A stretch of DNA of 64,000 bases. Source: Ascidia mentula. Lineage: Eukaryota; Chordata; Ascidiacea; Phlebobranchia; Ascidiidae. Shown piece by piece: positions 1 through 49,900 of the stretch. The notes below the pieces were generated by a model. It was not told the origin of the DNA and did no database searches. It saw only the letters and a list, made by a program, of their open reading frames with translations. The stretch covers positions 17,546,001 through 17,610,000 of the forward strand of contig OX387203.1 of NCBI GenBank assembly GCA_947561715.1, read 5' to 3'. The position numbers and the translations under genes were made by a program. Positions within the stretch are counted from its first letter, which is position 1. The number at the start of each line of letters is the position of its first letter.

Positions 1-976
1 CTTCCAGCATCATTTCTGTACAAATAATACTGCTTGGTAAGATTATTGGATGAGTCGTTATTGCAAAAAGTGATGACATGTTTTTACCTTACAGGTGGTG
101 CATTGCAAAATTTAACTGGACAAATGAAAGAAAATTGAAAAAAATCAGAGAGTGGCGAGATGAGAAATATGGAGGGGTTTTGTACGACCATATTTATGAA
201 AAATATGATATCACTGAAGAAGGATGCAAGTTGAGTTTACTGCCAAAGGTCTTCAAAATACGGTAGAAAATAAATACTTGAATATATTTAGTAATAGTTA
301 ACTATACCGGCTATGGGTTTTTAAATGGGATTTAACAATTTTCTGTTTTCATTCATTTTGTTTGAGTTTATTTCTGAACTGATATTGTGTATATGGCATT
401 GGCAGCATACATCAGTTGTTACTTATCCTATTCAGTTTCTCACATGTTTAAGTTTCGTATTTATTTGTTTGCATGGGGTTAGTTATATGTTTTTGTTTGT
501 TCAAAATATTATTTCAAAATATTTATTCAAAATATTAAAATAGGAAATATGTAAATTCTTTGCCATGGTTGGTTTGCACATGGCAAACTATGTTTATTTC
601 GTAACATTGATTATTGTTCCACCCTTTTCTTAACACTAGACTGTCGCCAACTTGTTACCATTTCCAGCTGGCTAATCGTTAAACTTTTTGACTTTTGTAT
701 TAAGATTAAAAGGTCTGAATAAAGATTTAAGCAAAAATTAGAAATATTTTTCAGTGACTTTTTGTATTTCCTGCAAATTTAGCAAACCTCAGCCAAGTGA
801 TGTTGCATTTGTTTTGATTGAAAGCTCAAAAGTGATCAAATGTGTTTCAATCAAATGTGATGATTTGTACAAACAGTCAAATAACACAAAGGAGATTATT
901 GAGAGCAAACTTGGTTCAACTGAGTACGATGAAAAGTGCAAGATTTCCATCATTTACAATGGAGAAAAACTTTATG
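1..976 (+). CDS. Module 1 (partial): end of ZU5 and UPA, cleavage motif lost
   Basis: Exons 1-36, 95-262 and 783-976. The ZU5 end reads ..TNNTAWW.. where the other modules read ..THFSW.. or ..NHFSW.., so His, Phe and the nucleophile Ser of the FIIND cleavage motif are Asn, Thr and Ala. The UPA part follows, with a GVLYDHIYEKYD strand region and a CDDLYKQ strand region, and ends at KLYG. The frame is open throughout. It is spliced across 977-1755 to module 2. By family knowledge this module should fold as ZU5-UPA but not self-cleave. The intron holds nothing recognised. Confidence 0.75.
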
Positions 977-3900
977 GTAACTGGAAGATATTAAAAACTT
1001 ACAAGCATTCTGTGTGGAATTTGTGTCAAACTTTTAGTAAATCAAGTTTCATTTTTACCTAATTCCTGTGAACATAACCGTATGCACATGACTACCAACC
1101 AACGTGAACTTTACATACATAATTTGAATTATGATAGCATAGAATTGGATAACAATGAACTTGTTTTCCTTTCTGAAACATAGTATTTTTGTTACTATTT
1201 GTTGTTGTATACGCAAGTAGCTATAGTGGTGTTCTTTGTAAGAGCTGCCATTTGTCTTTCCAGCTTTCATTAAATTGTTAACACAAAAGCACCATCCTTG
1301 TTTAAACCACATCTTGATGTTTGTAGGTAGATTGCTTGAAAAAAATTAATAAAAACAAAACTTACTGTAAACATTTTAACAATTACCTGAAATAACAACT
1401 CTTTACAATAATATTTGTACTAGAAAACAATTTCCTTAGTGGATGCATTTATTCAGTTGGTTTTTCAATGTTTTATTAGCATTACAACCTACCTTTAACT
1501 TATAACACTTCACAATAAGATTTAAAAACAGAAAAGTTACTTCTGAAATTAACACATAAAATCTGTAGCAAACTTTACCACATTACTGTCAAACACAAGA
1601 AGTTTTTTTTTAATATTTTAAATGTTTCAAGATGTAAATTAACAATAGGTTTTAGTTTTTATTCTCTGTTGTCGTAATTTGGGTGATTTGTGTTTTAAGA
1701 TAGTTTACTAGATTTAATCTCTAATTTCTGGTAACATTATCATTACTCATCACAGAACCCACTGACAATGATGAATATGAACATGAAGAAATACTTCCAA
1801 TCGAATTATATTTTTCCAACATCGGAATTGAACTTGTTGATGCTCAAACCATTGGACAGCGTCTGAATGTATTTAACCATTATGTTACATTACTTGATAT
1901 AAGTAACTGTAACTTGAAACTGGAAACACTGAAATTCTTTTGTGAGGGAATTAAACAAATGAAGCATGAGGTAAAGATACGTACCTTGTGATGACCATCA
2001 TCTACTTACTGTTTTGTACTTTTTGTATCCTTGAAAACCAAGTTTTTGAAATACACTAATATCAATATCAAATCCTGAAAATTAGGTTTTGAAGGTTATC
2101 AGCATTTATTGTCCTATGCAGTGGCAATGGGTATTTTTTGGAGGTAGATAGGTATTAATAACCTTAATTTGTATTTTCAAGGAAGAATGTATACTTCTAA
2201 AATTTCATTTTTAGCTGCGTCACCTTGAATATTTTGATGCCTTTTCATCTAACAACACCCTGCACCAAATGACTAGCTGCCGGAAAGTTAAATAAACTGC
2301 ACTAAAACTGCACAAAACACTAAAAAAATCCATGGCATTGGCACATGCGTCCCTGCTAATCCAAAACTTTATATGACCGTGATGCATGACTGGTTATACT
2401 ATTAAAACTTTCTTTGTGACAAAGAAGTACAAGAATTGCAGTTTATTTTGACATTCATTCATTGATAACTAAATAATACACCTTGTATTTTTCTATTGTA
2501 CAATAAATTCAGTAACGGTCAATGATTCTCCTATTCTATTTTTTTTTGTCATATTCATGTATTTAGGCTTATTTTTATGAGCATTGATAGGGAAAACGAT
2601 TGCTCCCAGAGTCTGCTATTAAACCTTTATACATATCTATATAACTGAAGATTATTTCAAAGAATGAATTATGATATGGGTTGTTACAGATGCAAACTTT
2701 AAAAGTGAGCAACAATTCACTTGGAGATAAAGGAGTTAAGATTTTGTCAACTTGTTTACATAAAGTACAAAAACTTGATGCAGACGGATGTGGAGTTACA
2801 AGTGTTGGGGCAATCGAGTTGTCTGCAGCAGTCAATAGAAATCCAGACCCGGTATTTTTTCCACTGAATATCATAGTAATGTAAAGTTAGTGACAATTCG
2901 AAAACTTGATTATTTGTGGTAATGGTAGTGGTATTTGTAGAGTAAGTATTAATAGATATATTAGAAAGCTGTAGGAGATGCTCACCTGTTTAAAAATAAA
3001 CCTCCTTCTTGCTATTCTCTGTCAAAAAATTTGTTCAGTAGGTGCATAATAACTTACTTTATATCTCAAAGAAACATAAACATTATCATTTTGCTTATTT
3101 CACTTACCTAAAAGTGTTTTTTAATGCAAACAATCCTACCAATTTCCAGACAAGTTTTCTTCGTCACTTTATAGTGCCTTATCCAGGGCGACACCTTGTG
3201 GCAAAAATACTGCAAACAACATGTGTAAATTTTTTTTTTAGAAATAATAGAAAATTCGCTAACTAATAAACATTTTATATTGATCATCTCAGACAAAATC
3301 ATTAAAACTCAGCAACAATCCCCTTGGAGATGAAGGAGCCAAGATTTTGGCAACTTGTTTGGATAAAGTGCAAAATCTGGATGTGGATGGATGTGCAGTT
3401 ACAAATATTGGAGTAATCGGGTTGTCTGCAGCAGTCAACAAAATGCCATACATGGTAAATGTGCAAACATGTACTTAACATATTGTTAATATTTTGTTGG
3501 TTAATGGAAGTTTAGGTTTTATTTAGCGAATACTTGCTGTTTTTTTCTGTAATTTGTTATTGGACACATATTTTGTGATTCTGATTAAAACTTTTTATCA
3601 TTTTACAGATGCAAGCCATAAACTTGAACAGGAATATGATTGATGACGATGGTGCAGAACACATTGCTCATTGTTTGCACAACATCGTTAACTATCAACA
3701 AACTGCTGAAGATTTGTTGCAAATTTTATCTCCTGAAGGAAGGAAATTTACTGGATCAAAAGTGGATGACTTACAAGATCGTGTAAGAAAATGGTCTTGT
3801 TGAAATCATTAGCTAGTATAAACGTTTTTTGTTTTTAAAGTTTTATTTGACAAATACTTTTAAACAGGACAACTATGAGCTTGTGGATTCGAATTCATCT

Positions 3901-6900
3901 CCTGTTGGGAAAAAAGGAGGTAGATTAGAAGTTGGTGGTTGTATTGTGGAAATCCCTGGAGATGCTTTGGATCAACAAGTACTCATAAAACTGACCTCAT
4001 ATTATGGAAAGCGAAGTGAAACGGTAATTAATTGAAATAACTTGCAAAAAATGCCTTATATAAAACCATTTTGCAGAATCAAATTACCCCAATGCTTAAA
4101 TGTGAACCAAACCATCTAAAGTTCAAAAAGGACATTTCCATTACTTTACCAACTTCCTATATTTCAGAAACTCGACAGTTTATTGTAGTAAGTGGTTTCT
4201 TACATAAGAATATCTTTAATTCTCATTTTCTTGTTTGTTTTGAGGTTTGTGGCTTAAATTTTCATTAACTTAGAAAATAAGCTTCCAGATCTGTACAATA
4301 TTCCTAAATTTGAAACTCTTTGTTTTGAATTTAAATCAATGCTAGTCATTTTTACAATTAATCTATCACCTTTATGAAATCAATAGCGTTTTTTAAGGTA
4401 AAAGAAAGTGTGGATGGATTAAAATGGTGTGAAATTGAAACCAATTTTTTTAATAATGATTTCCAGCATCGGTTCTTTACTACTCACTTTTCATGGTCTG
4501 TATATAAGTTTTTGTAACATGTATGGTTGTTTTTCTTATTTTTGGTGATTTATTGTCTTTTCTAGGAAAGTGGTGGAAAAGTTAAACGATTGGCGATATC
4601 ACCGGAAGAAAAAAAAAATCAAAGGAGAATGGGAAGAAGAATCTCAACAAGGAGTGTTGCATATTTCTATGTATGACCATATTTGTCAAAAATATGATAA
4701 TGCTGAAGAAGGACTGAGGAAGTTAGATTTGGACCCACAAACTTTTAAAATCAGGTAAGAAAGTTAAAAAAAGCTGAGCAATTTTCTTGTTGTTAATTTT
4801 TTTCCTTGGTGTTTTCCTGCAATTTTAGCAAACCATCAGAAAATGACTTTGCTTTCTTGGAGATTAAAAGCTCAACAGTGACTAAATATGTTTTGATCAA
4901 CTGTGATGATTTATACAAAGGTCCTAATATTACAAAGCAGATTGTTGTGAAAATGTTGGTTCAAATAAGTATGATGGAAACTGCATGATTTCTATTGTCT
5001 ACAATGGAAAAACAATTTATGGTAAATGATTTGCATATCTATGTTTCAACATGTTATTGGCTCACTGAAATCCAGGTTTTCATAGAATATTGTTTTCTGA
5101 AGCAGAAGGAATTTAAAGTTGTTTGTTACATTAAATCATGTTTAAGTGTGTTGTCAGTATAAAAATCCCCAAATAGTAATAAATATTATCATCTGCCAAA
5201 GCAACTTTCCTGTTTATATTTTTTCACCATTGCAAGTTTTGCACGATCGCACTCGATAAAATCATCAATCAATGTAGTTCTTCTATGATATCATTACGTT
5301 TCTTCTATAAGTGGTGCAGAACAAGATTATTAAAAATCATTATGGGTTTGATCTGCATAAGGTTGTATAAAAATGTTATCTCTTGATCACATTTTTTTCA
5401 TTGACAGTCTGAACCTCTACACACATGTACACGCACAAACTGGCCTCCATGTCTCAAAAACACAATGGGACCATCTTGTCCCAAAACTTTTGCTGGTCCA
5501 TTCCATAATCTAGAGCCATCCCTTTTATAAAAGACAAGTTCATTTATGTTATAGCGGGTTCTTGTGTTTCTTCTCTGTTTGCGAAGGACTCGTCTTATTT
5601 TCTCAGAGTTCGCACCTGCAGTGAAAGCCCTTCTAGCTGCATGCAACGCACTCAAATGCATTCCCACGTCATGACGTTCAGTTGCTTACATGGATTTTTG
5701 TCTTGAATAATTGATGGCAAGGATATATTTTGACCAAGAACAAGCTGTGATGGGCTAAATCCGTTATTGTTAATATGTGCATTCTTTGCACTCACAGTCC
5801 AGGCTACTGTAGTAAGCCAGTCACATTTTGTATCAAATTAATTCAAGATTAGTTTGTGTCTTACATGACATACCTTTTTCTTTTACACATTATAACTTTT
5901 GGCAACATTGTTAATTATGTTACTTTGACATGAGGACTTGTGGTTGCGTACCACTTGGAGGTAACACCATTTCGATGCATACCACCTAGTTGAGTGTTAC
6001 AAAGTAACCTAAGGAATGAAGTAACAAACATTTTGAGATCACTTACAATTTCTAAAATTCAAACTATATCTGCAAATAACGGAAATGTGATCGCGTACCA
6101 CCCTGGAAAGGTATGCACACCACCGGTTGGGAAACACTGTTTTAAACCATACTGCTTTTTTGGCATTTACCGCTTATTTACAGACTGTGTCCACCACTGC
6201 GTGTCCATAAACTTCATTAATCAGATATTGTTTTTACCACCATTTGACTGAAAACAATTTCCAACCTTTGTTGGTTAGTTATCCAAGTCAATCAAGTAAA
6301 AAAATCATTGATGCAAAATCATTTTTGTGTAAGGAAAGGGGCAACACTTGTACTGAATAGATTAAAAAACTTTTGGTTAAACAGCTTTTTTCAGGCGTAT
6401 CACTAAGTCAGTTAACTTTAGTGTCTGCTTTTAGTCAGCTATCGTATTGCTTTGATTTAATACCATTAATACTGCTTTCCCTTCAGACACATTGTTTCAT
6501 ATTTATATAACAACCTTTTGCAGAACCATCTGAGAATATTGGGTATCAATTTGAAGAAAATCCTTCAATGGAATTGCATTGTTGCAATAGTAAAATTGGA
6601 CTTGCTCAAGCTCAAGCCTTTGATGATCATCTAGATATATTTAATCTTGATGTTACATTACTTGACATAAGTAAATGTAGCTTGAAACTGGAAACACTGA
6701 AATTCTTTTGTGAGGGGATTAAAGATATGAAGCATGAGGTAAAATTACAGACCAAGTGTTTGTGAAGTCATATTATTTTTTTTTAATTGCTTTTACCATG
6801 TAGGACAATTAAAACAAAACACAAAAATATTTACCTAACATATTGTATTGTAATCATGGCTTGCAGTTAAAGTTTTGTTTTCTTGTGTCTAGACAAAAAT

Positions 6901-9900
6901 ATACTGTGTCAAGCAACATAGCTGATACAAAAGTGTCTCATATAGCACACTGTTTCAACGAAATAGCTTAAAACAATGACTAATGACCACCACGTCTTCC
7001 AAGCAGCTTAGGAAAATTCTTTCCTATTTCGTCATTAGTCAATATCTATTGCACTGATGAGATGCATTATTCAGCCAATTCTCATTCAAAATCATAAAAG
7101 TTACAACCTATTATAAACATCTAGTTAGCATTTGCAATAATTCAGAAAATCATCAATTTATACCTTTATGTTTTGTATCATTATGCCGAATTGTTCATAT
7201 GATTAAATACAATTAAGTTGTAAATATTAAAATATACTTTTAACCCAAGTATTGGTCATGTTAAAATCATGACAGATGAAATCATTAAAAGTCAGCAACA
7301 ATCCACTCAGAGATGATGGAGCCAAGATTTTGGCAACTTGTTTGGATAAAGTTGAAAACCTTGATGTTGAAGGATGTGGAGTTACAAGTGTTGGAGTAAT
7401 CGAGTTGTCTGCAGCAGTCAACAAAATGCCTTACATGGTAATTATTGTATGAAATATTACAGGTTAATGTGTAGAGAGTCACTCAATGAATTGTTTATGC
7501 TACAGGCTATTATATGTTATTAGTTGAATCATTGTATTTCATAATTCTAAATAATTTTTTTTTTTCAATTGGCAGATGCAATCCATAAACTTGAATAGGA
7601 ATAGAATTGATGACGTTGGTGCAGAACACATTGCTAATTGTTTACACAACATTGTTAACTATCAACAAACTGCTGAAGATTTGTCACAAACTTTATCTCC
7701 TGAAGGAAGGAAGTTGATTGGATTAAAAGTTGCGGAGTTACAAGATCGTGTAAGAAAATAATGTTACTTAAAAGCTAAAGCTAAATAAAAGGTTTTTATT
7801 ATTTTAATTTGGATTTCTATTCAACACAAACATATAAATAGGACAACTATGAGCTTGTTGATTCCACTTCATCACTTGTTGGGAAAGAAGGAGGTAGATT
7901 AGAACTTGGTGGTTGTATTGTGGAAATCCCTGAAGATGCTTTGGATCAACAAGTGGACATAAAACTGACCTCATATTATGGAAAGCGAAGTGAAACGGTA
8001 ATTACATGAAATGATGTAAAAAATATAGAAATGAAAATACTTTATTTAAAACCATTTTGCAGAATCAAATTACTCCAATGCTTAAATGTGAACCAAACAA
8101 TATGAAGTTTGAAAAGGACATTTCCATCACTTTACCAACTTCATTTATTTCTGAAAGTCAACAGTTTATTGTAGTAAGTTGTTTTTTGTAATTTTCATGT
8201 TACATGCAATTTTTTTTTTTTACTAAGTCTGACTAATACATTTTAACTTAATTGAAACAAACTTTAAGGCTGTTCTGCTGTTCAGTAAATCAATTCAAAT
8301 CAACAATTTTATATATTCAAGAATTTATGTTAATATTTATCTTTGTTAATAACAAATTAATAATATTATAGGTCGCAGAAAGCATGGATGGATTAAAATG
8401 GAATGACAATGAACCTTGTTTTTATCAGAATAATTGCAGACATCATTTCCATACAAATCATTTTTCATGGTAGGAAAATCGAATTAATAACATTTAATTT
8501 TGTGTTTATCATTTAATTTTGTGGATCGAATTGTCGATGTCTTAATGTTCTTCTCAGGTGGTTGATAAAAAAAATCTGTGATTCTTTTTGGCCAAATGAA
8601 AAGAAAACAAAAAAGATCAAAGGTGAATGGGAAGAAGGATCACAACAAGGAGTTTTGCATATTTCTATGTATGACCATATTTGTCAAAAATATGATAATG
8701 CTGAAGAAGGACTGAGGAAGTTAGTTTTGTTTCCACAAACTTTTAAAATCTGGTAAGAAAGTTAGAAAAAGCAGAGCAATTTTGTTGTTGTTAAGTGTTT
8801 TCCTGCAATTTTAGCAAACCATTGGAAAGTGACTTTGCTTTCTTGGAGATTAAAAGCTCAACAGTGACTAAATATGTTTTGATCAACTGTGATGATTTAT
8901 ACAAACGTCCTAATATTAGAAAGCAGATTGTTGTGAACAAAGTTGGTTCAACTGAGTATGATGGAAACTGCAAGATTTCTGTTTTCTTTAATGATGAAAA
9001 ACTTTACGGTAACTAAGATTTAACCAGTTCTTTTTCTGCAACATTTTCTCACATATAAAATGTTGCCTAGCAGCTTTTTGCCGAACAAACTCTTTATTTA
9101 ATGGGTTGATTTTTTTGGTTTGTTGTATGCCATCTTCCCATTTCATTTGGCAAATGATCACTCCACATTTTTGCAATATTAAAACCAAATAAAATAAAAT
9201 TATCACAAATTGGACCATTGCTGCAGGTTGGATTAATTTTTTTTTTGAACACCGATTTGTTTTGAATTCTAGTTGTTAAAAACCCTAATTTTATTGGCAC
9301 TTTCCTGTTTGCAGAATCTCCCAACTATGTTGAATGTGGAGAAAATCCTCCAATGGAATTGCATTGTTCCAACATTGAAATTGGACTTGCACAAGCTCAT
9401 GCTTTTTGTCATCATGTGGATATATTTAATCATGATGTTGCATTACTTGACATAAGTAGCAGTAATTTGAAACTGAAAACACTTGAATTTTTTTGTGAGG
9501 GGATTAAAAAAATGAAGCATCAGGTAAAGATAAGATGAAATACATTTTTTGTGTAATTGTTTCTTGCTTACTGTTTACTTTTGAAAATAATTATTTTGGT
9601 TTTTGTAAAATATGATAAAAAAGCACAATTTAGTTGAAACAATATGTTGTTTATTCATACTTTGAATTACTGTTTGCAATTCAAATGTTATGTAGGCCCC
9701 TTGAACCAACAACCGAAAAAAAATTATTCCTCTTTTCAATTAAATTAGCAGTGTTCAAAAACCCGACATAACAGCTAATTTTTTAAGAATATGCTCAGTA
9801 GTTTTATTATTGTTTTGATTCACATAGTTTGAATAAAAAACATGAAACAAAACTGTTGTAAACGAACATATATTTGTAAGCAGCTATAATTAATTAGCAA

Positions 9901-12900
9901 ACTGGTATTTTGCACCCTAAATTTAATGAAAATGAAAATAAGATCAGAGGAAAGTTAAAAACATACAAAAAGCGAGTGAAACAAAAACTTTCTTATTTGC
10001 TTCTTGGAAATCCCCCTATTTGCTAGTTTTTGTTATGATTGTAACCAAAAACTTTTGCATTAACAATATCCGTAGAAACATGACATTTGTTGTCACAGAT
10101 GAAAACTTTCAAAGTCAGCAACAATCCACTTGGAGATGAAGGAGCCAAGATTTTGGCAACTTGTTTACATAAAGTCCAAACCGTTGATGTGGATGGATGT
10201 GGAGTTACAAAAGATGGCATCAAACAAATATCCTCAATTATCAACGGAATGCCAAACCCGGTAATTTAGGACATTGGAATTAACCAGACATGCGATTGCT
10301 GAATGGAAAACTCTAATAATAACGACTCATTTTCACCAAAAAAATTTTTCTCTGAATTGACACTGTTGCTACCCGTACATGATGTCAAAGTCAATTGCCT
10401 CGTTTATCATCTAATGCTTTTTGGTATTATGTTGGTAATACCGCATGTGACCATTGACCAAAATCAGCGGCGTATATTTACTTAACTTCATTGCAAATAA
10501 AATTTTCTAAGTGGTCCCATTTGCAATCCCTCTGCTCTTTGACCTGCCTGTCTACATGGCTTACTGCATAAACAATTTTCTGTGATTTTAAGCTGAGTAA
10601 CTTAGAATTTGAATTATGTTTCTACAACCAAAAAATATAAACCACGTCTTTTGACCTTCAAAGACCAATGTGCACATTATGATGCCATTAATAATTTGAA
10701 AGGTTCAAGATACCCTTATTTGAATTAATAATTTTTTATTATTACTCAATATGTATAGATTAAATAACAATTTTATTTCAAAAAAATATTTATTAAGGAT
10801 AATTTTAATATTGATCACAGATGCAATTTTTAAAAGTCAGCAACAATCCGCTTGGAGATGAAGGAGTCAAGATTTTGGCAACTTGTTTGGATAAAGTTCT
10901 AAACCTTGATGTGGATGGATGTGGAGTTACTGGTATTGGAGCAATGAAATTGTCTGAAGCAATCAACAAACTGCCATACATGGTATTTATTGTGGCCTTG
11001 TAATGTATCTGTCTTTGGGTTACCATACGTTTTGCCGTGCCTTACATATCGATGTGCGCCATGCGCCAGGTTTCTGCAAGTCCTTTTAATGCAATGGTTA
11101 CACTTTGGGTATTGATGATGGTTTCTGTGGGTTCTGTACTGGCTATAATTCCTATGCATTTTGTCTAACTTAAATGTTCCAACAGGAATAAAAAGGAATA
11201 CTGCTTAGTATGGGAATAAAATTACAATAGAAAATGGCTCTGTGTCAAGTTTTTGTTTAAATTTAACCTTTTAGTTTTTTGCACTTAACAAAAAATCATT
11301 TTTTTATTTTTATAGATGCAAGCTCTTAACTTGAAAGAGAATACAGTTGGTAAAGTTGGTGCAAAACACATTGCAAATTGCTTGCACAACATTGTTAACT
11401 ATCAACAAACTGCTGAGGATTTGTTACATTCATTATCTACTGATGAAGGGGAACCGGTTGAATCAAAACTCAAGAAGTTAAAGGATCGTGTAAGAAAAAA
11501 TTTTCCAATTTTTTTATAACATTTTGATAACAAGATAAAAACTACCTATTAATTTTGAAACATCCCACACATAATGGCTAGTTTTTTATCTGTACATTAG
11601 GTTTTACATTTTTATGTAAATAGGACAACTATGAACTTGTGTTGTGAGTGATTGTTTTTCTATAATTTAACCCAAACATGAAAATTTAAGGCTAAGCTAA
11701 AGTAAAATGTAATGGTTTGATTTCTATTCAACACATACATATGAATAGGACAACTATGAGCTCATGGATTCAACTTCATCACTTGTTGGGAAAGAAGGAG
11801 GTAGATTAGAAGTTGGTGGTTGTATTGTGGAAATACCTGAAGATGCTTTGGATCAACCAGTACTTATAAAGCTGACCTCATATCATGGAAAGAAAACTCA
11901 AACTGTACTTACGAAACACATGAAATATGCAAAGATTAGTTTTTTTTTATTGGAAATACTTTTTGCAGCATCGAATTACTCCAATGCTTAAATGTGAACC
12001 GAACAATCAAAAATTTCAAAAAGAAATTACCATCACTTTACCAAATTCCACCCATTTGTCTGAAAAGGTGTGGATTGTGGTAAGTTTCAAATTTGTAAAC
12101 CTTTTTTACTTTATTTGTTATTTTTGACATAAAACCTTGTTTGCAATACTAATAATTTTCATAAATATGAACCACTTTTATTTAATTTTATCGACAAAAA
12201 CCAATCAATATCAAAGATGAAAAAAAGTGTGGATGGAATGAATTGGAGTGAATTTGATACTAGATTTTATCAAAATGAATGTCATCAGTTCCATGCGACT
12301 CATTTCTCATGGTAGGTGATTGGTAAAAACTACTGTAGTTGTTGTCGATACCATATTGTCTACTGTAGGTGGGTAGTTAAACAACAACCTACTGGGACAA
12401 TAAAAGATAAAATAAAGAAAATCAGAGGGGAGTGGGTTGGAGGAAATTCCCAAGGTGTTTTGCATATTGCAATATATGACCACTCCGAAAACCCTGCTGT
12501 TGTTGAAGAAGGAAAAGTAGTTTTGCCACCAGAAGATTTTTTAATAAGGTAAAAGTCAGAATACAATGTTGTTGTGTGCAAATAAAGTGCAGTAATTTCT
12601 TTTTTGATTTTAGACCATTTCCTCGTATCAAAACAAATCCTTTCTTGGAAATTGAAACCCCAGATGGAATTAAATGTCTTCCCAGCAGATGTGAATTGCA
12701 TGGTTTTTATGATTCAGGCATAACGAGAAGACAGATCACATTAACTTTAAGCAATACAAGTATATCAGATTTTGATGAAAAGTGCAAAATTTCTGTAACC
12801 CTTGGTGGTAGAAAGTTTTATGGTGATGGACATCAAGGAAAAATCTGTGCGGATCTGTTTCTTGCAACGGTAGGAAAAAATAGTTGATATTTATGTTTAA

Positions 12901-13398
12901 TTTAATATCAATCATGTTTTTTCAGTAGAAAAGTTCCACTTGCAATTCCATAGAATAAACACAAAAAAAGTAAGAAATGTTGTGATATTTTTGCAAATGT
13001 AATTATTTTTGTCTGTAAAATTTTTTTCAAATCTTTGCAGTGTTTGCAGACAGGTGTTCACACTGTTTCTAGCTGTGAGGTCTCACCAGTGCAGCTGGTG
13101 ACTGTGGCACAGACCTCGCAGTTCGAAACAGTGTGTACACCTGTCTGCAGCTCTTAATGATTATTATGTCTTTTTTGCGTGTATAATTAATACTACTGTT
13201 AAATTTGCAAATATTTTCTTCTAAGGTTCATCACACTCCACATCAGCTGACTCATCTCAGATATCTTATAGTGTGGTTGGTGCTGAAAATGTAACTTTCA
13301 CTAAACACTACCACTATTCAGTTAAGTTAAATGACAATTTTCCTGTGGAAAGTGACAATATTTATTTCTTCTCTAAAAGTTTAGCAAAGGAGATGTAA
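1..13398 (+). CDS. Polymeric LRR-FIIND (ZU5-UPA) protein, 3' part of the gene
   Basis: The 5' end lies upstream of the window. Exons seen: 1-36, 95-262, 783-976, 1756-1970, 2690-2851, 3293-3454, 3609-3782, 3868-4023, 4077-4187, 4398-4495, 4566-4754, 4829-5021, 6524-6738, 7276-7437, 7576-7749, 7842-7997, 8063-8173, 8372-8469, 8558-8752, 8815-9008, 9315-9523, 10099-10260, 10821-10982, 11316-11489, 11749-11904, 11969-12079, 12217-12311, 12369-12548, 12614-12822, 13226-13398. Homologous exons have the same or near-same length and phase in every module: 162 nt LRR, 174 nt LRR plus linker, 156 and 111 nt ZU5, 193-209 nt UPA end. Each UPA end exon stops in phase 1 and joins the next module's first exon in frame, so the modules form one chain rather than separate genes. 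The order per module is NLR-type LRRs, ZU5, HFS motif, UPA. Known FIIND domains cleave themselves between Phe and Ser and stay associated. No CARD, death domain or NACHT is visible here; an N-terminal signalling domain could lie upstream. An innate-immune or cell-death role is inferred from the family only. Confidence 0.8.
1756..5021 (+). CDS. Module 2: LRRs, ZU5, HFS motif, UPA with a frame break
   Basis: Exons 1756-1970 (LRR cap, TLLDISNCNLKLETLKFFC), 2690-2851 and 3293-3454 (54 residues each, two 28-residue RI-type LRRs per exon), 3609-3782 (LRR plus linker), 3868-4023 and 4077-4187 (ZU5 core with GGRLEVGGCIVEIPGDAL), 4398-4495 (ends at THFS), 4566-4754 and 4829-5021 (UPA). The donor after the HFS exon is GTCTGT, weaker than GTAGG in modules 3 and 4. 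The last exon is 193 nt while modules 1 and 3 have 194 nt; one base is missing near 4950, after IVVK, which throws the frame and meets a stop at 4986-4988. Either the gene is broken here or this is an assembly error. Skipping the exon would not restore frame. Confidence 0.72.
2215..2430 (+). repeat. Dispersed repeat, copy 1 (intron of LRR-FIIND gene)
   Basis: This segment resembles 38580-38815 in the same orientation. Both have the phrases ACACC/CAGCACCAAATGA, CTAGCTG/CCAGCTG, AAAACACTAAAAA/CAAACACGCTGAAAA, a TGCATCA/TGCATGAC block and a final TTTCT(T/C)TGTGACA. No coding frame is visible. It looks like a short non-autonomous element of unknown class. Confidence 0.5.
5395..5835 (-). mobile_element. 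Retroelement integrase-end fossil
   Basis: On the minus strand the segment encodes the end of an integrase core (LVLGQNISLPSI) followed by a C-terminal RNA/DNA-binding strand region (NGPAKVLGQDGPIVFLRHGG), as in pol genes of LTR retrotransposons. It sits in the long intron between modules 2 and 3 of the LRR-FIIND gene. It is a short, broken relic with no terminal repeats visible; the family within LTR elements cannot be set. The rest of 5040-6520 holds no gene. Confidence 0.6.
6524..9008 (+). CDS. Module 3: LRRs, ZU5, HFS motif, UPA, intact
   Basis: Exons 6524-6738 (LRR cap, 215 nt as in module 2), 7276-7437 (one two-LRR exon; module 2 and 4 have two such exons), 7576-7749, 7842-7997, 8063-8173, 8372-8469 (ends NHFS), 8558-8752 and 8815-9008. 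All joins are in frame with canonical GT-AG ends. The ZU5 shows GGRLELGGCIVEIPEDAL and the UPA shows GVLHISMYDHICQKYD, nearly identical to module 2, so modules 2 and 3 arose by recent duplication. The cleavage motif HF|SWW is complete. Confidence 0.78.
9315..12822 (+). CDS. Module 4: LRRs, ZU5, HFS motif, UPA, C-terminal module
   Basis: Exons 9315-9523 (209 nt cap, two codons shorter than the others), 10099-10260 and 10821-10982 (two-LRR exons), 11316-11489, 11749-11904, 11969-12079, 12217-12311 (one codon shorter, ends THFS), 12369-12548 and 12614-12822. The UPA is the most diverged copy; it carries GVLHIAIYDHSENP and an insertion around ITRRQITLTLSN. The final exon could be read through to 12869, but homologous exons end at KLYG or KFYG and the 12822 donor keeps the downstream tail open, so 12822 is preferred. 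Intact in frame. Confidence 0.76.
11620..11650 (+). other. Relic duplicate of the ZU5 exon acceptor
   Basis: A second AATAG|GACAACTATGA with ..ELV.. coding start lies about 125 bp before the true ZU5 exon of module 4 (11749), then runs into a stop. It is a partial duplicate of the intron end and first seven codons. Use of this acceptor would truncate the product. Confidence 0.5.
13045..13150. repeat. Foldback element made of two hammerhead-like halves
   Basis: A near-perfect 25-bp inverted repeat: TTGCAGACAGGTGTTCACAC at the left pairs with GTGTGTACACCTGTCTGCAG at the right, with inner AGGTCT/AGACCT arms and a CACCAG..CTGGTG centre. Read on the minus strand, the left half follows the hammerhead order CAGCTGCA, CTGGTGA, GACCT, GAAACAG, CTGTC, TGCA seen intact at 62864-62916, with core changes. 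It lies in the last intron of the LRR-FIIND gene. Confidence 0.6.
13226..13398 (+). CDS. C-terminal tail exon of the LRR-FIIND gene
   Basis: It joins exon 12614-12822 as G|GT and gives a Ser-rich start (GSSHSTSADSSQISYSVV) and about 57 residues before TAA at 13396-13398. There is no death-fold domain, unlike NLRP1, CARD8 (CARD) or PIDD (DD). The two other frames close quickly. The acceptor is CTAAG. Confidence 0.6.
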
Positions 13399-14822
13399 GT
13401 AATGTGCAAGGTTTGTAATTCGTGTTGTGGAGCAACATAATGACTTGTTTGTTAAACTTTCTGCACATTAGCGAATGTAATTCTGAGTTTTATACAAGAT
13501 GATTCTATGCATGCATTGCACTTTATTGGAAACCTTTTTCCATTTTATCGCTTTAAGTTTTTGTGAAATTATTGCATTCCTTTTACATCTCTATGCATTG
13601 TTTGTGGTTGTGTTGGCTTGGTTTCCCAAGCAATAAATGACCGAAATCTTAGTTTTGAGTCTAATTCTGAGGTTCTCAACGTTTCTGAATGTAGAAAATA
13701 AATTGGAAACCTCCAATATGCAAGGAGTCGCATAGAATTGAGGGCGGTCGTAGCACACGTGTTGGAATGCTGTGGGATATTTGTTGTATATGAACCGTTT
13801 ATTAATTCACATCCATGGAATAAATTCCCAAGGTTACAAACCAGTTGACTGGTATCGCCACAAGGCGTTTATCAGGTCGCCAGCAAATAATTAACGGCAT
13901 CAAGTAGAACGTCGAAATTTGTTGGATAACTAAGCAATGTTGTATACTGAGGTTTAAACAAATATATCGTGTGACATACGTGGCAGGACTGCACTGAGTA
14001 AAATAATACTGACATGTGTTTCGATACCGTGGGATAAAAGTCCGTTGACATCACAAGCGATTTCCTATTCACACATACAATGCTACATTACTCTGATCAA
14101 CTATTGAAAGAAAACAACACCAAATGCAACTACATTCGTGTGGTAAAATGGTATTAGGCACTTGGACCATGCAGAAAAGTTTAACGATGTTGTGTAAGCC
14201 GCCTTTTCAAGTAAGTCACGGAGTGATCGGAACTCAATTAACTCTGTATGCGTTTTGTATATAAGCCACATACTTGTGCACAAAATCAGAAAAATCACAG
14301 TAATTACAGAAAATCACAGTAATCACATCATAGTCGCCATCACAGACATCTGAATATGTTTTTTCCTAAATTGTTCCAAATGCCATGCACACCTGCGTAA
14401 AATCGATCAACAGAAAATCCACCCGCATTTCAACTCACCAATTATTTATCAGGACGATTAAAGTTTTCATGTCATGTTTTCAAATAAAAATTATTTTGTT
14501 TAAATTGTTACGTTCCTACGCTCTAGAACATTTACATAGAATCAGTTGGTATCTCGTTTCAACATGGGAGCAATATAATTTCGTTTATCCTTTGTGTGCT
14601 TGTTTGCAATTGACCGTTTCGAAAATGATTTATTTTCCTGAAACTGCTGCCTTAAAACTACAAAACAAATAATATAATATAATGGTAAACGTACTGTCCA
14701 GATATGATGGGGTAAGAAGGTTCTGTGTTCGGGTCCGAGGTCTGCGTCGCCCAACTCGTTTCAAGCTTAAATCAAAGAAGGCATTACACAGCACGTATTG
14801 GGTGGAGTTGGTTCAAGATTAC
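13399..14822. other. No gene recognised
   Basis: Short frames only. Around 13800-13890 the minus strand has CTGATAA..GGCGATACC, which resembles the decayed hammerhead-like tail common in Penelope/GIY-YIG retroelements; too degraded to call. A TTCTCAACGTTTCTGAA phrase near 13675 resembles a hAT-type terminal motif. Confidence 0.3.
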
Positions 14823-17778: not shown

Positions 17779-20700
17779 TTGCGACAACAAGTATGACCTA
17801 CAACGGTCAAAGAAAGAATGTGCTCTAAGACGGGATGAGTTTTGCAAAGGAATAATCCAATGTGTTGGCAAAACGTTCGACTGTTTGTGATGGCGATACT
17901 TGCAATGACTGCCCAGCTTTCCAACACTGGAATAATGGACATGGATTCAAATGTGTTCGGAATGGCAGGAATTGCAATCTTCCGCAGTTGTTTCTATGGG
18001 ACGGCATTGCAGATTGCGATGATAAATCTGATTTGTGTTACACCTCGGATAATGGAGACGTCAAGTATTATTGCAACCCAAAATTTTGATGAAAAAGCTT
18101 TGGTGAACTGCTTAAAATTTTCTCCAAACAGAATGGCATTAGTAGTTCGTTGCAAATATTTAAACCAAACCATAATCCAATGTTTGACAACGTTGATGAT
18201 TCTTACAGAAACATTTCTACTTCTTCATCCTTAAACGAGACATTGTGCTTCCGATGCACAAATGACCCCATGATCATTTCAAGGACAAGTGTATGCGATG
18301 ACGTCATAGATTGCCCTGATATGAGTGATGAGTGCAGTTGTAATGGGAAAGCCTCTCAGCAATGTTATAATTACCAAAAAACGTATATCGGGGAACTTTT
18401 TAATTCTGTTTTTTTGAGCAAATTACTTATTAATTGTGTTTAGTTCAAAGCAACGTTGTAATTGTTTCGACAATAATGGAGTCAATAAATGGAGAACTCA
18501 AAAAATGAAATCTGCGACAAGCTTGCTCATTGTCTGGGGAATTCCCCATGTGACTACCTGTGCCCCTCCCACTTCCAGTGTCCGAATTCAGCTTGTTGGA
18601 AACGTTCGACTGTTTGTGATGGCGATCCTTGCAATGACTGCCCAGCTTTCCAACACTGGAATAATGGACATGGGTTCAAATGTGTTCGAAATGGCAGGAA
18701 TTGCAATCTTCCGCAAATGTTTCTATGGGACGGCATTGCCGATTGTGATGATAAATCTGATTTGTGTTACACCCCGGAGAATGGAGATGTCAGGTAATGT
18801 CAGCAACAAAAATGTTTTTCCGATTTGTTGATCGGATAAAACAGCACATCATAAATTTTGAGAAAACTACATCGTTTTCTGCTTTTTTTTGTTACAGAGA
18901 AGTGCAAAATTCTCACACATTTAATAATCGGTTATGCTTCCAATGTATAAATGACCCCATGATCATCTCAAGATCAAGTGTGTGTGATGACATCATTGAC
19001 TGCCCTGATAAAAGTGACGAATGTTTTTGTCAATCTAAGCAAACCGAAGATTGCGGCAAGTTTTATCCGTAAGTGATAACGGAGTGTTTTAATAACAACA
19101 AAACCATTTCATTGGCAGCAACAATGTTGCGCAATCTCAAACCAATGTCCCGGTGAAAGTTTGTGATGTACTTGTCGTATTTCAACGGATCCTAATCCTG
19201 ATTTAACATAAATTATGCTGGCCAGACGACATTGGCCATTTCGTCCTTCTTGTTTCAAGAAGTCGACGCCGCGTGACAGTTTGCAAATCAATCATGTCAA
19301 AATTAAAATGAATTTGCGTGACAACCCGTCCTAATGACTTATATAGGTCCACTGCTCATCCTGTTTTAGTCACCAAGCTCGGCATCACAACCGTCTAAGT
19401 ATGCGAATGCATGGATTTTGTTGGAAAATTTAGGCACTTTTGACACTTAGGTCCCCTTAAATCACCTCAAACAAGGCATGTTTACTTATTCCTTTTCTTT
19501 AAACAATAAGTTTTCGGCGCACCAAAAAATAAACATAGCTATTACTCGAGATATTTAATTCAAAAAAACTTTTGACAAAATCTGGTTGTTTAGTTTTTCA
19601 GCTTAGTTTCAGCAGAATCTAGCCTTCGATTGGGCATTGTCTTGTTCCAGCGACACCAATATATTGAAATATGAATTAAATTGCAGTCAAGCTTGATCGG
19701 CCTCATACTGGGGTTAGGATCCACGTAAAAAAGCGACTCCCAGCATCTTTGGCTTGTTAGCCATAATATATTTCGTTTTTCTTGCAACAATAAGCGACCA
19801 AAAATAATGTGGATTCCACTCGATTGAAAACACGTCTAGTCAATGCTCACAATCAGAATGCGGTTTATTTAGATTTGTTTCTAAAAATATAATTTTGCTT
19901 CGTAAAGACACCCACCAATGTGGCTTCTCTAGTAACACATCCAGGAACAATGATAACGTGTGCGACTTGCGGAAGACACTTCGCTATTAGTGACTTATCG
20001 TGAATTGTGTCATTTGCCTAGATTAGAGTGTTTGGTTGGAGTCGGGCTTGCTTGCTTGCAAATAAAAAATGTGCAAATTCCCTGGAAAAATCAAAACCCG
20101 AAATTTATTGGAAAAACATCGCAAAACAGGCACTTATTGGAACAATGATGACATAAGATTCATTTCAAAGATAATTTAACAAATGACACCTGCCACAGAA
20201 ACTTTATCCCCGCCTCTAAACAGTTTCCTTGACAACTAAACTAAATTGCATTTATTTTGTCACAAAATTATTTATTTTGTCAAAAATAAAATCATGCAAT
20301 TGGACAAAAACACTCTTTCACGTAATGTCACAAAGAAGTAACAGATCATGTTTACAAACCACATTCATTCGCATAAGACTTCAAATATTTTTAGTGTTGA
20401 CGAGAATGTAAAAAACAAATGCTCAAAAACAACAACAACAATAACCTACTACATACAGGGGGCCTGGGAGTGTTACGTAAGTAAACATGTTTATATTATT
20501 ACTTTATCAAAAGCCAACTTACCACAAATAAGAGCACCTTATTAGTAAACTTTCCCCATTGTACTCACTTGCTTGCTCAATAACAAATGTTTTGACAGCT
20601 AAAATCGCACACATCGAATTAGCGTATATAATAGTATAAAATGATTGTGATTCTGATTCAATCCTCTGATTAAATACAAGGAACTGAGTGTTCGGTTACT

Positions 20701-39224: not shown

Positions 39225-39677
39225 TCATCCAAACATTGAATCATGGAGTTGATCAACACGATATTGTCGTTCCTTTTCTTCTTCTTGTTGTTTTTTGTAT
39301 TCTTCGTACTCCGGGTCGTCTGTCAAAAGTTCATGGCGACATAATGGACATGAGTTAGTTTTCTCCAACCATGGAAGTAAGCAGTCTTTGTGGAAACAAT
39401 GGGAGCATGGCATTTCAATTATGACATCATCATATGGTAGAAGACAGACAGGGCATTTGTTTTGTTCTGTATTTTCTAATTCATCTGCTTTTTTTCTTGG
39501 CAAATCATGAACAACTTGTTTGGAAGCTGGAGGGGCGAGTTTTTCGCTCATGGGAATAAAATCATTGAAAGGATTGTTGCTAAGCAGGTTCCTTAGCAAC
39601 TCCATTAAATCTTGTCCTTGAGTAGAAGGTGTGGATTCTGTCGGCAAGCAATCATGTTCGTCAAAGTAGGAACTCAT
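39225..39677 (-). CDS. RNF181: E3 ubiquitin-protein ligase RNF181
   Basis: A single 150-codon exon. The N-terminus MSSYFDEHDCLPTE closely matches the RNF181 start, and a RING-H2 domain follows: C75, C78, C91, H93, H96, C99, C110, C113 (CPVCLLPYDD, MPCSHCFHKDCLLPWL, TNSCPLCRHEL). The tail is a Glu/Lys/Gln-rich helix ending DQLHDSMFG, like the human tail. Length is close to human RNF181 (153). The family works with E2 enzymes to ubiquitinate substrates in the cytosol. The absence of introns in a region of intron-rich genes suggests an old retrocopy or intron loss. The start codon is set by the conserved N-terminus. Confidence 0.92.
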   Translation of the reverse strand: MSSYFDEHDCLPTESTPSTQGQDLMELLRNLLSNNPFNDFIPMSEKLAPPASKQVVHDLPRKKADELENTEQNKCPVCLLPYDDVIIEMPCSHCFHKDCLLPWLEKTNSCPLCRHELLTDDPEYEEYKKQQEEEKERQYRVDQLHDSMFG

Positions 39678-40735
39678 TATCTAGGTAGGATATTATAGAC
39701 CTGACACAAAAACGCACAGTTTGTCCAAAATTATCCAGTAAACTTGTAAATAATGTAGATACAAATATACATTACAAAAACCCTGATGTAAATCAAAATC
39801 ATTTTGTTGATTGCACAGATATGTGGTGCTTTCCAGTTAAGTTTTTGCATGAATTGAATTATCGCATAAAGTCATTATTCTGAATTCTGATCTTATGTGG
39901 AACACAACTAAAACGTAATAATAACAAACAAAGCCGGGTGCAGTGGAATTGATAGAAAATATAAAACACTTCACAGTGTTGGTAAGGCTTCTTTTCTGAT
40001 GTTAGTATTTTGTTCAAATTTTAGTTGTTTAGTTTATTTTGAGCAGATTTTTAGTCAGAGTAGCCTGGTTTTCTGCTTTATATTATTCAAATAATGATGA
40101 TGTCAATCACTTTGCTTTGCAACGAAGTCTGCAATATTTTTTACGCATGAAAGCTGTAAATGTTTTCAAGTTGTTTCAATGGTCATTACACCTGTCCTGC
40201 TGTTGTGCACGCAGCCAATTTAATCACTTAGTTACACTGTTACAACACTAATGTTGGCCACAGCCGCGTTCGAAACGTCTGCTAGATAATGTACAACACA
40301 CTAGCTTTGGCTTTTCCATTCAAAGATTCTGGTGTATTTTTCCAGATATTTCGTCGCTTTAACTTCCAACAAAACATGATTTGACAAAATCTGTTGCGGG
40401 AAAGCACCTGATTTTACGCCTCAGTAACTTTTAAACATTCAGTCTCTGGTTTAATGAAAGAATGCTAAACTTTTAGTATTCTATGGTTTCATATTCTCTT
40501 TCTACAAAATACGAATCTGAGACATACAACGCCTTTAATAAAATCTTCTACAGGGTTATGTCGGCGCCTTAAATTTGATTTGTGAAAGTAACTGCAAAAA
40601 TTTGCTCTTAATGCTAACAACTTAAACCAATCGCATTCCTTTGTTTGTTTATTGGACCCAATGCGAAAACACGTCGAAATACGCTAAAAGCTACATTCAT
40701 GTGAGTATAAACTGTACGATTTAGGGTTGCTGGAG
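39678..40735. other. No gene recognised
   Basis: AT-rich intergenic sequence; it contains the likely promoter of the minus-strand RNF181 gene and the 3' region of the minus-strand S100-like gene. No motif stands out. Confidence 0.3.
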
Positions 40736-46915: not shown

Positions 46916-49900
46916 TTACAGAGCAGTTTCTGCTTCAACCACATGTAAGTTTTGTCGGTTAGCAACCACAACCACAATTTCCTGTCGCTCTTCCTGTGGT
47001 TGAGGTCTGAAAACGGCACGTAGGCCATCACGGACTCTATCATAAAGCAGTTTCGGTGCGTTGGAGTAGATGAGGGGATTTAGAGAGCTGTTGATTGGGA
47101 GTAGGATGATTGCTGACACAGCGTACATCACTGGAGGCATAGGGACTCCACCGAAGTTTACAAATGCCATGATGGAAATTGGAACCCAGCAGAGAAAATC
47201 GGTAATTATCAGTCGGAGGATTTTCTTTTGCACTTCTGCCGAAACAAACAGCATAAATGGAATAATATGTTTGCAAATACAAATGCGGTTACCTTTGTTT
47301 TGTCTTGCCGCCCTGCCATCTCTTGGTCTCTCGTTCACTTGCCTGGCACTGGCAGTTGTTTTCTTGTATATCCAAAAATATGTAATTGCCACAAACAAGA
47401 CAGCCAGAAAGTTAAGAGTAATAATAGCGATTGAATATCCCCATGCCTTGTTGTTGGTCTTTACATAAAGTTTGCTGATGCAAACGCTGCTGCTGCTGTA
47501 ATATCTACACAAAAACAATTTCGAGGAGATAAAATTGAAGATTTTGCTCGTATAAAAACGAACCCCAAATATCCAGAAATATCAAATAGCTCAGTGTAAT
47601 TGTAATCCTCAAGAATATCCAGAAAATCCATCCAGGAATTAGCATCATTCACTCGCATGAGGGCAGTGTTGAGTACTTGGGAATCGTTGCTTGTGAAGTT
47701 GTGTTGGAAAGTTACAAATCGATCCAAGAAGTTATTCATGCCTGTATACGCAGCGCCAGTGTCATTCGAAACTGGTTTCACCACCAACATTAACGACAAT
47801 TTCTTTCTAGAGAAGTCGACTGCAACATTGTCAAAAAACGGATTCTCATTCATCCAAGCTTTGGTTTCGAACAAATGTTGAAGTTGAGTTGTGAGTGGAA
47901 TAAAAGCAATTGCAAACGAGAATACCCACGAGAGCATAATGGAAAGGATGACAGTTTTCAATTCCGGTTTCAAGGATGCATCGAGTGGCTGAAACAAAAG
48001 AGAACATTCACGTGTTTTCATTAAAAACATTAAGTTTGCAAGCTCGTTGGTTCTTTCAAATCGAGGGATGGGGAACATAGTTGTCCGTTCGAATCCCATC
48101 GGAATGGAAATTGCTCCTTCTTTCTCTGCCCTTTAGTTCCCAAATTGGACAAAACTGTGTCATTTTAACAATATTCGTTTTAGTTTCGTTTCTCACGTCA
48201 GTCTTAGATTCTAGCGATATCTGTGAGTGTGAAAATAAATAGGTTTCTGGAGATAAAAGATTTCCAGAGAGAAAGTTGTCGTAAAATTTTGGAAAGGGTC
48301 GTCACCGGTTCAACGAAGTTGGCAATAGCTGACTTAACCAAATACAATTGTTTCACTTACGTTTTTCACAGCATACAATCGGAATATGGTCAACAGAACC
48401 ATTGTAAACACCGATGTTTCGCTTGAAAGCAAAACCAATACCCCCATTGTAGTGCAACTTCCGCTTGATCTTCAAATAAGGTCTTTGGCACTATAATTTC
48501 CAGAGTATTTGACACCAGCGGCTCCCAGCATGATCAGATAAACTCCCATGAGTAGATCGGAAACGGATAGATTCAAAACGAGCAGATGGTTTGCACGAAA
48601 TGCAGCAGATTGTGATTCTGTCGTCGTCAACGTTTTACCTTCCATCACCATGACAACCTTAAAACAAATTGAAGGAATATAACACGTGTTCTTATTGTGC
48701 AACCAAGACTAAACAAACTTAGTATAAGAATTCAATGAAACTAGCAGAAGTTTCATTGAATTCTTAATACTAAATAGGAGATTGGTGTCGCTGATTAGTA
48801 AACAATGCCAACCAGAGGGCTAGATTCGGAAAAAACTAAGGGAACAGTATTAACTTAGTATAATTTACCAAATTTCCGGCAATGGCGAGCATCCCCATTA
48901 TCCACACAATGATTCGTAGAAATGGGTTTGCAATCAACTCGTATCGTGATGAAAATATGTTTTCGTTGATCACTTTTGTGTTTGTTGGGTCTGACCAATC
49001 AGAGCAGTCGCCCACTCCATTGAATTTCTATGTGAAGTAAATTAAAGAAAACTTTGTAGTTAAGTTGGTCATATTGGCGTCTGTAAACAGCACAATGCGA
49101 ATTTACTGTTTTGTGTGTAATTGGTGAACAACGGAACTATGGAAATTGGACAAAAAATGTGTACTGCAATATACATGTGTAGTTTTGTGTACATCGAAGG
49201 CGTGTGACGCGCTAATTGGATAGAAAACTGGCGCCAAAAATCAAAAATAATTGGTAAACTGGCAGTTCTCATCTGGTGGCAAACGTTGAGGTGTGCTTGT
49301 GTGGTTAAGTGTAAAGAACATGATTTTTGCATTGAGTCGCATTTTATTCTTTGGTATTCGTCCTTTTAACATTGGGTGTTTCAAAAATTGAATTCATATT
49401 GACGTCACTTTATTTAATTATGAAAGTATCCACCTCTGTACTCTGCTCCCAACTTTTGTTTTGACGGAGAGCCGTTAGTGCAGGGTGAACTGAGCGTTTA
49501 CCATTGTTGAGGTTTGGAAATTAAGCGCCAAAAAACGGATAAAGGGTCTTTCTAAATCGGTCCTAAAACTTCCATACCCGCCCTCCCAATAACTATAGTC
49601 CGAATTCGGGATCGATGAATTAATTTCGGTCAAAATAGTAACATGCACGGAATTAAAACATCTTTCCTACCGGAAACAAAATTTAAATATTGTTAACATG
49701 TGTTTACCTTCTCCTTCTTAACGAACAATGGATCTTTGTTTTCGCAAAAAAACCTTTGTGCAATTTATTTCGTCATTTTGATCATCGCAGTTAATTGTGA
49801 GGTCACAAACATCCGATTCGTTGACAGAAATCTGTCACAAAAATCTGGGAAATACTTAAACTGTCTTTGTGATTAACTGTGTGCGAAAGATTCAACAAAG

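What the first reader, a model, noticed from the sequence alone, without database searches (positions are those of the whole stretch)
1..13398. A single gene built of repeated self-cleaving LRR-FIIND modules
Four ZU5-UPA units, three preceded by NLR-type LRRs, are spliced in one frame. Known FIIND proteins (NLRP1, CARD8, PIDD) carry one FIIND, or in PIDD a pair of ZU5 units, near the C-terminus ahead of a CARD or death domain. Here the HF|S motif recurs at 4489-4494, 8463-8468 and 12305-12310 region boundaries of the ZU5 exons, so self-processing would turn one chain into UPA-LRR-ZU5 beads held non-covalently, a possible multi-break sensor. No death-fold follows the last UPA. The architecture is seen in the sequence; cleavage and function are inferred.
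Basis: partly seen in the sequence, partly recalled or inferred. Interest (0 to 1): 0.87.

Follow-up and report, generated by a model that had tools for sequence, protein, structure and literature searches.

The report
Sea-squirt NLR with repeated self-cleaving modules
A sea-squirt immune-receptor gene of the NLR type appears to carry four copies in a row of a leucine-rich-repeat plus self-cleaving unit, the first with its cutting site lost and the other three with it intact, although this copy also carries a damaging one-base deletion.

Summary
The array is real and is the 3' part of a larger gene. About 11 kb upstream of the window lies a NACHT plus NOD2-type winged-helix exon, then LRR-like exons and the front of a fourth LRR-ZU5-'UPA' module. 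In one hand-built model all 42 exons have GT-AG borders; the repeated module is phase 1-1, so copies can be added or skipped in frame. A locus 1.6 Mb away has modules M0-M3 in the same order, and a tree pairs them by position. All four modules show dN/dS below 1 between loci. HF|S is intact in M1-M3; the first module has NTA, and the first modules of three sister loci have HTA, HTA and RTA. Against the reading: M1 has a 1-nt deletion, so the plain splice form stops there and only an unproven alternative donor or skipping of M1 keeps the frame open; the 13398 end is doubtful; 'UPA' found no profile support. New variant of the NLR-FIIND kind; cleavage and function are inferred.

The parts
1..36 (+). 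End of module 0 ZU5c exon; the HFS position reads Asn-Thr-Ala (codons 26-34), so the cleavage site is lost
   Evidence: first ZU5/LRR exons of module 0 are upstream, in L036 (C71:17543367-17545999)
95..262 (+). Module 0, first post-cleavage exon ('UPA1')
783..976 (+). Module 0, second post-cleavage exon ('UPA2'), ends in phase 1 at G|GTAACT
1756..5021 (+). Module 1: LRRa 1756-1970, LRRb 2690-2851, LRRc 3293-3454, LRRd 3609-3782, ZU5a 3868-4023, ZU5b 4077-4187, ZU5c 4398-4495, UPA1 4566-4754, UPA2 4829-5021
   Evidence: GT-AG borders, open frames; LRR_6 above cut-off; ZU5 14.7 bits, below the 21-bit cut-off
4485..4493 (+). HF|S codons of module 1
4950..4969 (+). 1-nt deletion region of module 1 UPA2 (frameshift) and, at 4968|4969, an in-phase GTATGA that could serve as an alternative donor (unproven)
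6524..9008 (+). Module 2: LRRa 6524-6738, LRRc 7276-7437, LRRd 7576-7749, ZU5a 7842-7997, ZU5b 8063-8173, ZU5c 8372-8469, UPA1 8558-8752, UPA2 8815-9008
   Evidence: (ZU5 21.1 bits, cut-off 21)
8459..8467 (+). HF|S codons of module 2
9009..9314 (+). 306-nt intron between modules 2 and 3; too short to hold a gene end plus a new promoter and a start exon comfortably
9315..12869 (+). Module 3: LRRa 9315-9523, LRRb 10099-10260, LRRc 10821-10982, LRRd 11316-11489, ZU5a 11749-11904, ZU5b 11969-12079, ZU5c 12217-12311, UPA1 12369-12548, UPA2 12614-12869 (extended form ending GDGHQGKICADLFLAT)
   Evidence: (ZU5 22.5 bits)
12301..12309 (+). HF|S codons of module 3
12929..12969 (+). Linker exon after module 3 with an in-frame TAA; likely C-terminus of this copy (...LFLATKSSTCNSIE)
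   Evidence: the paralogous locus L044 has a sense codon there
13226..13398 (+). Tail exon GSSHSTSADSSQISYSVVGAENVTFTK..., conserved in other loci but after the TAA in this copy

Best explanation
The window holds the 3' part of one ascidian NLR gene: NACHT-winged helix, a short LRR region, then four tandem modules of NLR-type LRRs followed by a ZU5 domain with an HF|S-type site and a post-site beta-type segment in the place of UPA. The module is a phase 1-1 exon block, duplicated inside the gene. Shown by sequence: the exons, phases, three HFS sites, the loss in the first module, the sister loci. Inferred: modules 1-3 cut themselves at HF|S on folding, as PIDD and NLRP1 do, and the pieces stay together non-covalently; the uncut first module keeps NACHT, LRR and the first FIIND-like unit in one covalent head; loss or unfolding of upstream pieces (by a pathogen protease or the proteasome) frees downstream ones, the last being a module-3 C-terminal fragment of about 156 residues. 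Without a CARD or death domain, the output would go through that fragment or through the head. This copy may not make the full chain because of the module 1 frameshift.
For: NACHT 62 bits (cut-off 26.7) and NOD2_WH 31.2 bits (cut-off 23.1) in the upstream exon. 42 exons, all with GT-AG borders; with the alternative M1 donor or with M1 skipped the frame stays open for 2,501 or 2,032 residues. LRRa of M1 has no in-frame Met in the window or the 19.15 Mb paralog, so M1 must be joined to something upstream. M2-M3 interval 306 nt. AATAAA is not enriched in 1-13400: 19 against a shuffle mean of 19.8. Beyond the internal UPA2 ends, M0 and M2 copies differ by indels not divisible by three, as an intron would. 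Paralog at C71:19.141-19.161 Mb is colinear at 84-89% and has its own NACHT at 54% identity. Tree: M0 clade 100/98, M1 pair 95/83, M2 pair 99/98, M3 pair 100/100. dN/dS between loci: M0 0.58 (p 0.02) and 0.56 (p 0.012), M1 0.35 (p 8.5e-6), M2 0.47 (p 7e-4), M3 0.65 (p 0.036), not corrected for multiple tests. Of 19 modules with the site in view, 10 HFS, 3 HFT, 1 RFC, 1 HFA, 4 x-T-A. ZU5 up to and including HFS aligns by profile with two single-exon proteins of the same genome, probability 95%, E 3e-8. PIDD cuts after each ZU5 at HF/S, and S-to-A or F-to-H at the site abolishes cutting in CARD8 (PMC3210808, passages).
Against: With the plain M1 donor the frame stops in M1 (residue 1562). The 19.15 Mb paralog has a TAA in its M2 ZU5c and the 19.07 Mb locus a TGA in its M0 ZU5a. 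The linker exon after M3 has a stop. The post-HFS part finds no UPA or FIIND match: Pfam, PDB profile, comparison with the two single-exon relatives, and with real NLRP1 UPA sequence, where 61 of 200 column shuffles scored as high. No transcript was seen. Ascidians trans-splice, and M0, M2 and M3 have an in-frame Met in LRRa, so cistrons are not excluded for those. In the 19.15 Mb paralog M0 lacks its own LRR block. Pairwise M0 19.11 versus 19.07 gives dN/dS 0.72, p 0.39.
Confidence: 0.55

Rival explanations
1. Tandem separate genes, or cistrons of a trans-spliced operon: each module is its own LRR-ZU5-UPA protein that starts at the Met in LRRa and stops just after UPA2.
For: The genome carries 2,157 copies of the 16-base ascidian spliced leader, with unit arrays of about 720 bp; LRRa of M0, M2 and M3 has an in-frame Met; M1 and M2 of the window have stops soon after the UPA2 end.
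Against: M1 has no such Met at either of two loci; all LRRa acceptors are in phase 1 after a coding base; the post-UPA2 stop is not conserved in the paralogous M2 and M0 reads on 27 codons in the window with indels between loci; M2-M3 gap is 306 nt.
Confidence: 0.15
2. A decaying array: the four-module gene was functional in the past but this copy, and most multi-module copies, are pseudogenes in the assembled haplotype.
For: Disruptions in 3 of 4 multi-module loci read: window M1 deletion and tail stop, 19.15 Mb M2 nonsense, 19.07 Mb M0 nonsense; the window's assembly is reported at QV 64.9, so a base error is unlikely (PMC11109543, one passage).
Against: dN/dS below 1 for every window module against its partner; the exons otherwise stay open with intact GT-AG borders; an in-phase alternative donor or skipping of M1 keeps the frame. 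Past constraint alone could also explain the dN/dS.
Confidence: 0.3
3. The LRR-ZU5 modules are structural scaffold repeats (ankyrin-like ZU5 use) and the HFS is not a cutting site.
For: The nearest PDB profile hit, not significant, is ankyrin-2 (E 0.37); no UPA or effector found.
Against: HF followed by S, T or C is kept in 14 of 19 modules while the rest of the exon varies, and the exceptions are mostly the first module.
Confidence: 0.1

Closest known systems
NLRP1 (NACHT-LRR-FIIND-CARD)
   Same: NACHT with winged helix, NLR-type LRRs, then a ZU5 with an F|S site, in that order
   Different: Four LRR-FIIND-like modules instead of one; no CARD found; first site lost; UPA not demonstrated
PIDD1 (LRR-ZU5-ZU5-UPA-death domain)
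   Same: LRR before ZU5 and an HF|S motif, more than one cut per chain (PIDD features from PMC3210808 passages)
   Different: NACHT present; whole LRR-ZU5-post-site block repeated, not ZU5 alone; no death domain match in the window
NACHT-ZU5 proteins of sponges and cnidarians
   Same: NACHT and ZU5 in one protein, named in passages of PMC12909245 and PMC8260672
   Different: Those passages mention no tandem LRR-ZU5 modules
Ascidian NLRs as surveyed in PMC11508797 (passages)
   Same: NACHT-LRR
   Different: That survey reports only NACHT-LRRs or NACHT for ascidians, with FIIND-CARD in vertebrate NLRP1

Membership tests
NLR (NACHT-LRR receptors) | NACHT domain with winged helix | tested here: met
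   NACHT 62 bits, NOD2_WH 31.2 bits, both above cut-off
NLR (NACHT-LRR receptors) | C-terminal LRRs of the NLR type in the same gene | tested here: met
   LRR_6 above cut-off in 3 of 3 modules; one-gene link rests on phases and open frame, not on a transcript
FIIND (ZU5-UPA autoproteolytic unit) | ZU5 domain | tested here: met
   above cut-off in 2 of 3 window modules; 11 of 11 aligned modules match at E<=10
FIIND (ZU5-UPA autoproteolytic unit) | (H/S)F|S site at the end of ZU5 | tested here: met
   HFS in M1, M2, M3; not in M0 (NTA), so 3 of 4 modules
FIIND (ZU5-UPA autoproteolytic unit) | UPA domain after the site | tested here: inconclusive
   no support by sequence; structure prediction could not be run on a spliced module
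FIIND (ZU5-UPA autoproteolytic unit) | Actual self-cleavage | not testable with these tools
   needs protein
NLRP1 | Single FIIND followed by a C-terminal CARD | tested here: not met
   four modules; CARD search of the genome gives 3 matches, none on this contig
NLRP1 | N-terminal PYD or other effector domain | tested here: inconclusive
   exons before NACHT not found; retroelement DNA lies upstream
PIDD | C-terminal death domain, no NACHT | tested here: not met
   NACHT present; 17 Death matches in the genome, none in the window

The most novel reading that the evidence does not exclude
A serial 'break-away' receptor: a single NLR chain that self-cuts into a covalent head (NACHT-LRR plus a deliberately uncuttable first FIIND) and two or three LRR-carrying beads, each bead with its own ligand-binding LRR and its own release step, so that damage to any bead frees those after it. 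The repeated loss of the cut in the first module (T-A in four loci of one clade, and separately F-A in the NACHT gene at 12.44 Mb) would be the design feature that anchors the string to the ATPase.
Probability: 0.2. Interest if true: 0.85.

Novelty: new variant of a known kind. Interest (0 to 1): 0.6.

Why it matters
FIIND-type self-cleavage is known best from vertebrate NLRP1, CARD8 and PIDD. An NLR family with ZU5-HF|S units in a tunicate, the sister group of vertebrates, would bear on when the NLRP1 layout arose, and a tandem LRR-FIIND layout would be a new way to build a receptor that senses breakage. The natural set of cuttable and uncuttable modules within one gene is directly testable.

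Tried and rejected
UPA by sequence: Pfam single modules and 11 aligned modules, PDB profile search (best ankyrin-2, E 0.37, ZU5 part), profile comparison with the post-HFS parts of L050/L051 (probability 0.1) and with human and rat NLRP1 UPA letters shown by the PDB search (61 of 200 column shuffles scored as high): all negative.

RHIM-like reading of the tail (VVGAENVTF): noticed by eye; Pfam gave no RHIM match for 6 tail peptides at E<=10, and in this copy the tail lies behind a stop. Dropped.

An earlier idea that terminal modules lack a GT at the internal donor position was wrong: the Gly codon GGT gives a GT everywhere; 7 of 7 internal copies read GTA and 1 of 5 terminal copies (L011) does too. 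What does differ is that 5 of 5 terminal copies read on through a conserved GxGxxG(K/E)IxxDLF stretch.

dN/dS was first run with looser gaps and once with M0 LRRa out of frame; one search replaces both. M1 LRRa, LRRb and the part of UPA2 behind the deletion, M3 LRRb, and codons with gaps or stops were left out.

Structure prediction: 11 attempts, all for the single-exon relatives L050/L051, all answered 'busy'. No fold search was run.

Failed steps: script errors (repeated correctly); one search was an error of mine (wrong frame) and was repeated without that item.

Full report
What organism. COX1 of the same assembly reads without stops only under mitochondrial codes, and AGA/AGG fall on glycines under the ascidian code (the glycine positions were judged by eye). 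The 16-base ascidian spliced leader occurs 2,157 times, 0 for the reversed control, including arrays of about 720-bp units. So the window is most likely chromosome 7, 17.546-17.610 Mb. The paper gives QV 64.9.

What is in the window. Hand-placed exons give three full modules and the end of a fourth (corrected). Each has LRR exons of about 54 residues, ZU5 in three exons, the HFSW motif at the border of the third ZU5 exon, and two further exons. LRR_6 and ZU5 are supported by Pfam. The M1 ZU5 alone falls below the cut-off.

What lies upstream. L036 and L039 hold the rest: the M0 LRR and ZU5 exons, two LRR-like exons, short linkers, and a NACHT plus NOD2_WH exon at C71:17533430-17534761. Its own acceptor is in phase 1, so at least one more coding exon is expected; it was not found, and retroelement frames lie before and within the gene.

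One gene or several. The model of 42 exons has GT-AG at every border and phases that fit. The module is a 1-1 phase block. M1 lacks an in-frame Met at both loci read. Modules 2 and 3 are 306 nt apart. Against this, M0, M2 and M3 have a Met in LRRa, and ascidians trans-splice, so an operon is not excluded. One unit of caution: the phase fit is one ancestral event copied by duplication, not several independent ones.

Integrity. With the plain donor, a 1-nt deletion in M1 gives a stop at residue 1562 of the partial chain; an in-phase GTATGA at 4969 or skipping M1 restores an open frame of 2,501 or 2,032 residues. Neither is shown to be used. The linker exon after M3 has a TAA where the paralog has a sense codon, so the tail exon ending at 13398 is probably not translated here. 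The paralog has a TAA in M2, and the 19.07 Mb locus a TGA in M0.

Relatives. Searches find at least 164 matching exons in the genome for the ZU5-to-end query, and one search lists 95 NACHT matches from 317 candidates; both are lower bounds. I read about 20 modules in detail, chosen by score and place, not a census. Four loci have two or more modules: the window, 19.15 Mb (four), 19.11 and 19.07 Mb (at least two; the stretch between their modules was not fetched). NACHT was seen upstream at the window, at 19.15 Mb, in part at 19.11 Mb (residues 388-440 of the query), and at 12.44 Mb; it was not looked for at 19.07 Mb.

The tree of 20 modules pairs window and 19.15 Mb modules by position and puts all four first modules in one clade, sister to M1 and M2. 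The site is HFS in 10, HFT in 3, RFC in 1, HFA in 1 and x-T-A in 4 of the 19 modules where it is in view. The four x-T-A are the four first modules. The HFA is the ZU5 after NACHT at 12.44 Mb, outside that clade (88/90), so a separate loss. By the mutants in PMC3210808 (S297A and F296H dead) both changes should stop cutting; Thr and Cys are named there as possible nucleophiles.

Selection. Between loci dN/dS is 0.35 for M1, 0.47 for M2, 0.65 for M3, and 0.56-0.58 for M0, all p<0.05 uncorrected; the closest M0 pair gives 0.72, p 0.39, and the M0 post-site part alone gives 1.57, not significant. Exon and intron mismatch rates are close (8.4 against 9.8%, 7.1 against 10.2%, 10.4 against 9.9%), so constraint is modest, and none in M3 by that measure.

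Is the second half a UPA? Position and beta-like pattern say so, sequence does not. ZU5 up to HFS does align, with probability 95%, to two single-exon proteins of this genome that also carry HFS. So 'FIIND-like' is used here for layout, not as shown homology of the whole unit.

Mechanism. Shown: layout, sites, losses. From established work on NLRP1, CARD8 and PIDD (passages of PMC3210808): cutting at F|S and continued association of the pieces. Inferred: that M1-M3 cut; that M0 does not; that release runs along the string. Predicted pieces if all three cut: 1,444, 415, 486 and 156 residues, the first without its unseen N-terminus. No CARD or Death match lies in the window, though split exons could hide one.

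Literature. Searches listed no paper that names tandem FIIND modules in their titles or abstract starts; I read passages only, in seven papers. PMC11508797 reports ascidian NLRs as NACHT-LRR or NACHT only; PMC12909245 and PMC8260672 mention NACHT with ZU5 in early animals. The library holds open-licence papers only, so absence there is weak.

Verdict. A real, unusual gene layout; a new variant of NLR-FIIND; the specific copy may be damaged. Interest 0.6.

Noticed in passing
L039:3591-3606 and genome-wide: The 16-base spliced leader occurs behind a BEL/Pao-like retroelement (named by eye) near this gene and 2,157 times in the genome, partly in about 720-bp arrays at C1:15.24-15.30 Mb; many dispersed copies are unexplained.
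   Followed up: partly
L050:1178-2251 (-), L051:569-1801 (-): Two single-exon proteins with a hydrophobic stretch (by eye), a ZU5 just under the Pfam cut-off and an HFS motif; possible membrane-anchored self-cleaving relatives.
   Followed up: partly
C70:2.09-2.64 Mb: A tandem cluster of diverged LRR-ZU5 units about 12-36 kb apart; the one read (L053) has HFT at the site, and no NACHT in this cluster is in the list.
   Followed up: partly
L054 (C71:12435001-12442000): A NACHT 75% identical to this gene's, followed by LRR, ZU5 with HFA, and then LRR-like exons again; a second layout that mixes LRR and ZU5.
   Followed up: partly
13226-13398; L044, L045, L046, L047: Tail exons with a shared SADSxxISxSxVGxxNVT-like stretch; no Pfam match; function unknown.
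   Followed up: partly
55262-60717: Satellite array of 238-bp units (21.6 copies, 98% alike), which explains the G+C skew peak at 56-60 kb.
   Followed up: no
62661-63215: Two tandem copies of a 284-bp unit.
   Followed up: no
17871-19030: Two tandem copies that look by eye like LDL-receptor class A repeats; not scanned.
   Followed up: no
39225-39680 (-) and 46916-47581 (-): A RING-finger ORF (zf-RING_2, 51 bits) and a 7tm_1-like ORF (28.5 bits, just under cut-off).
   Followed up: no
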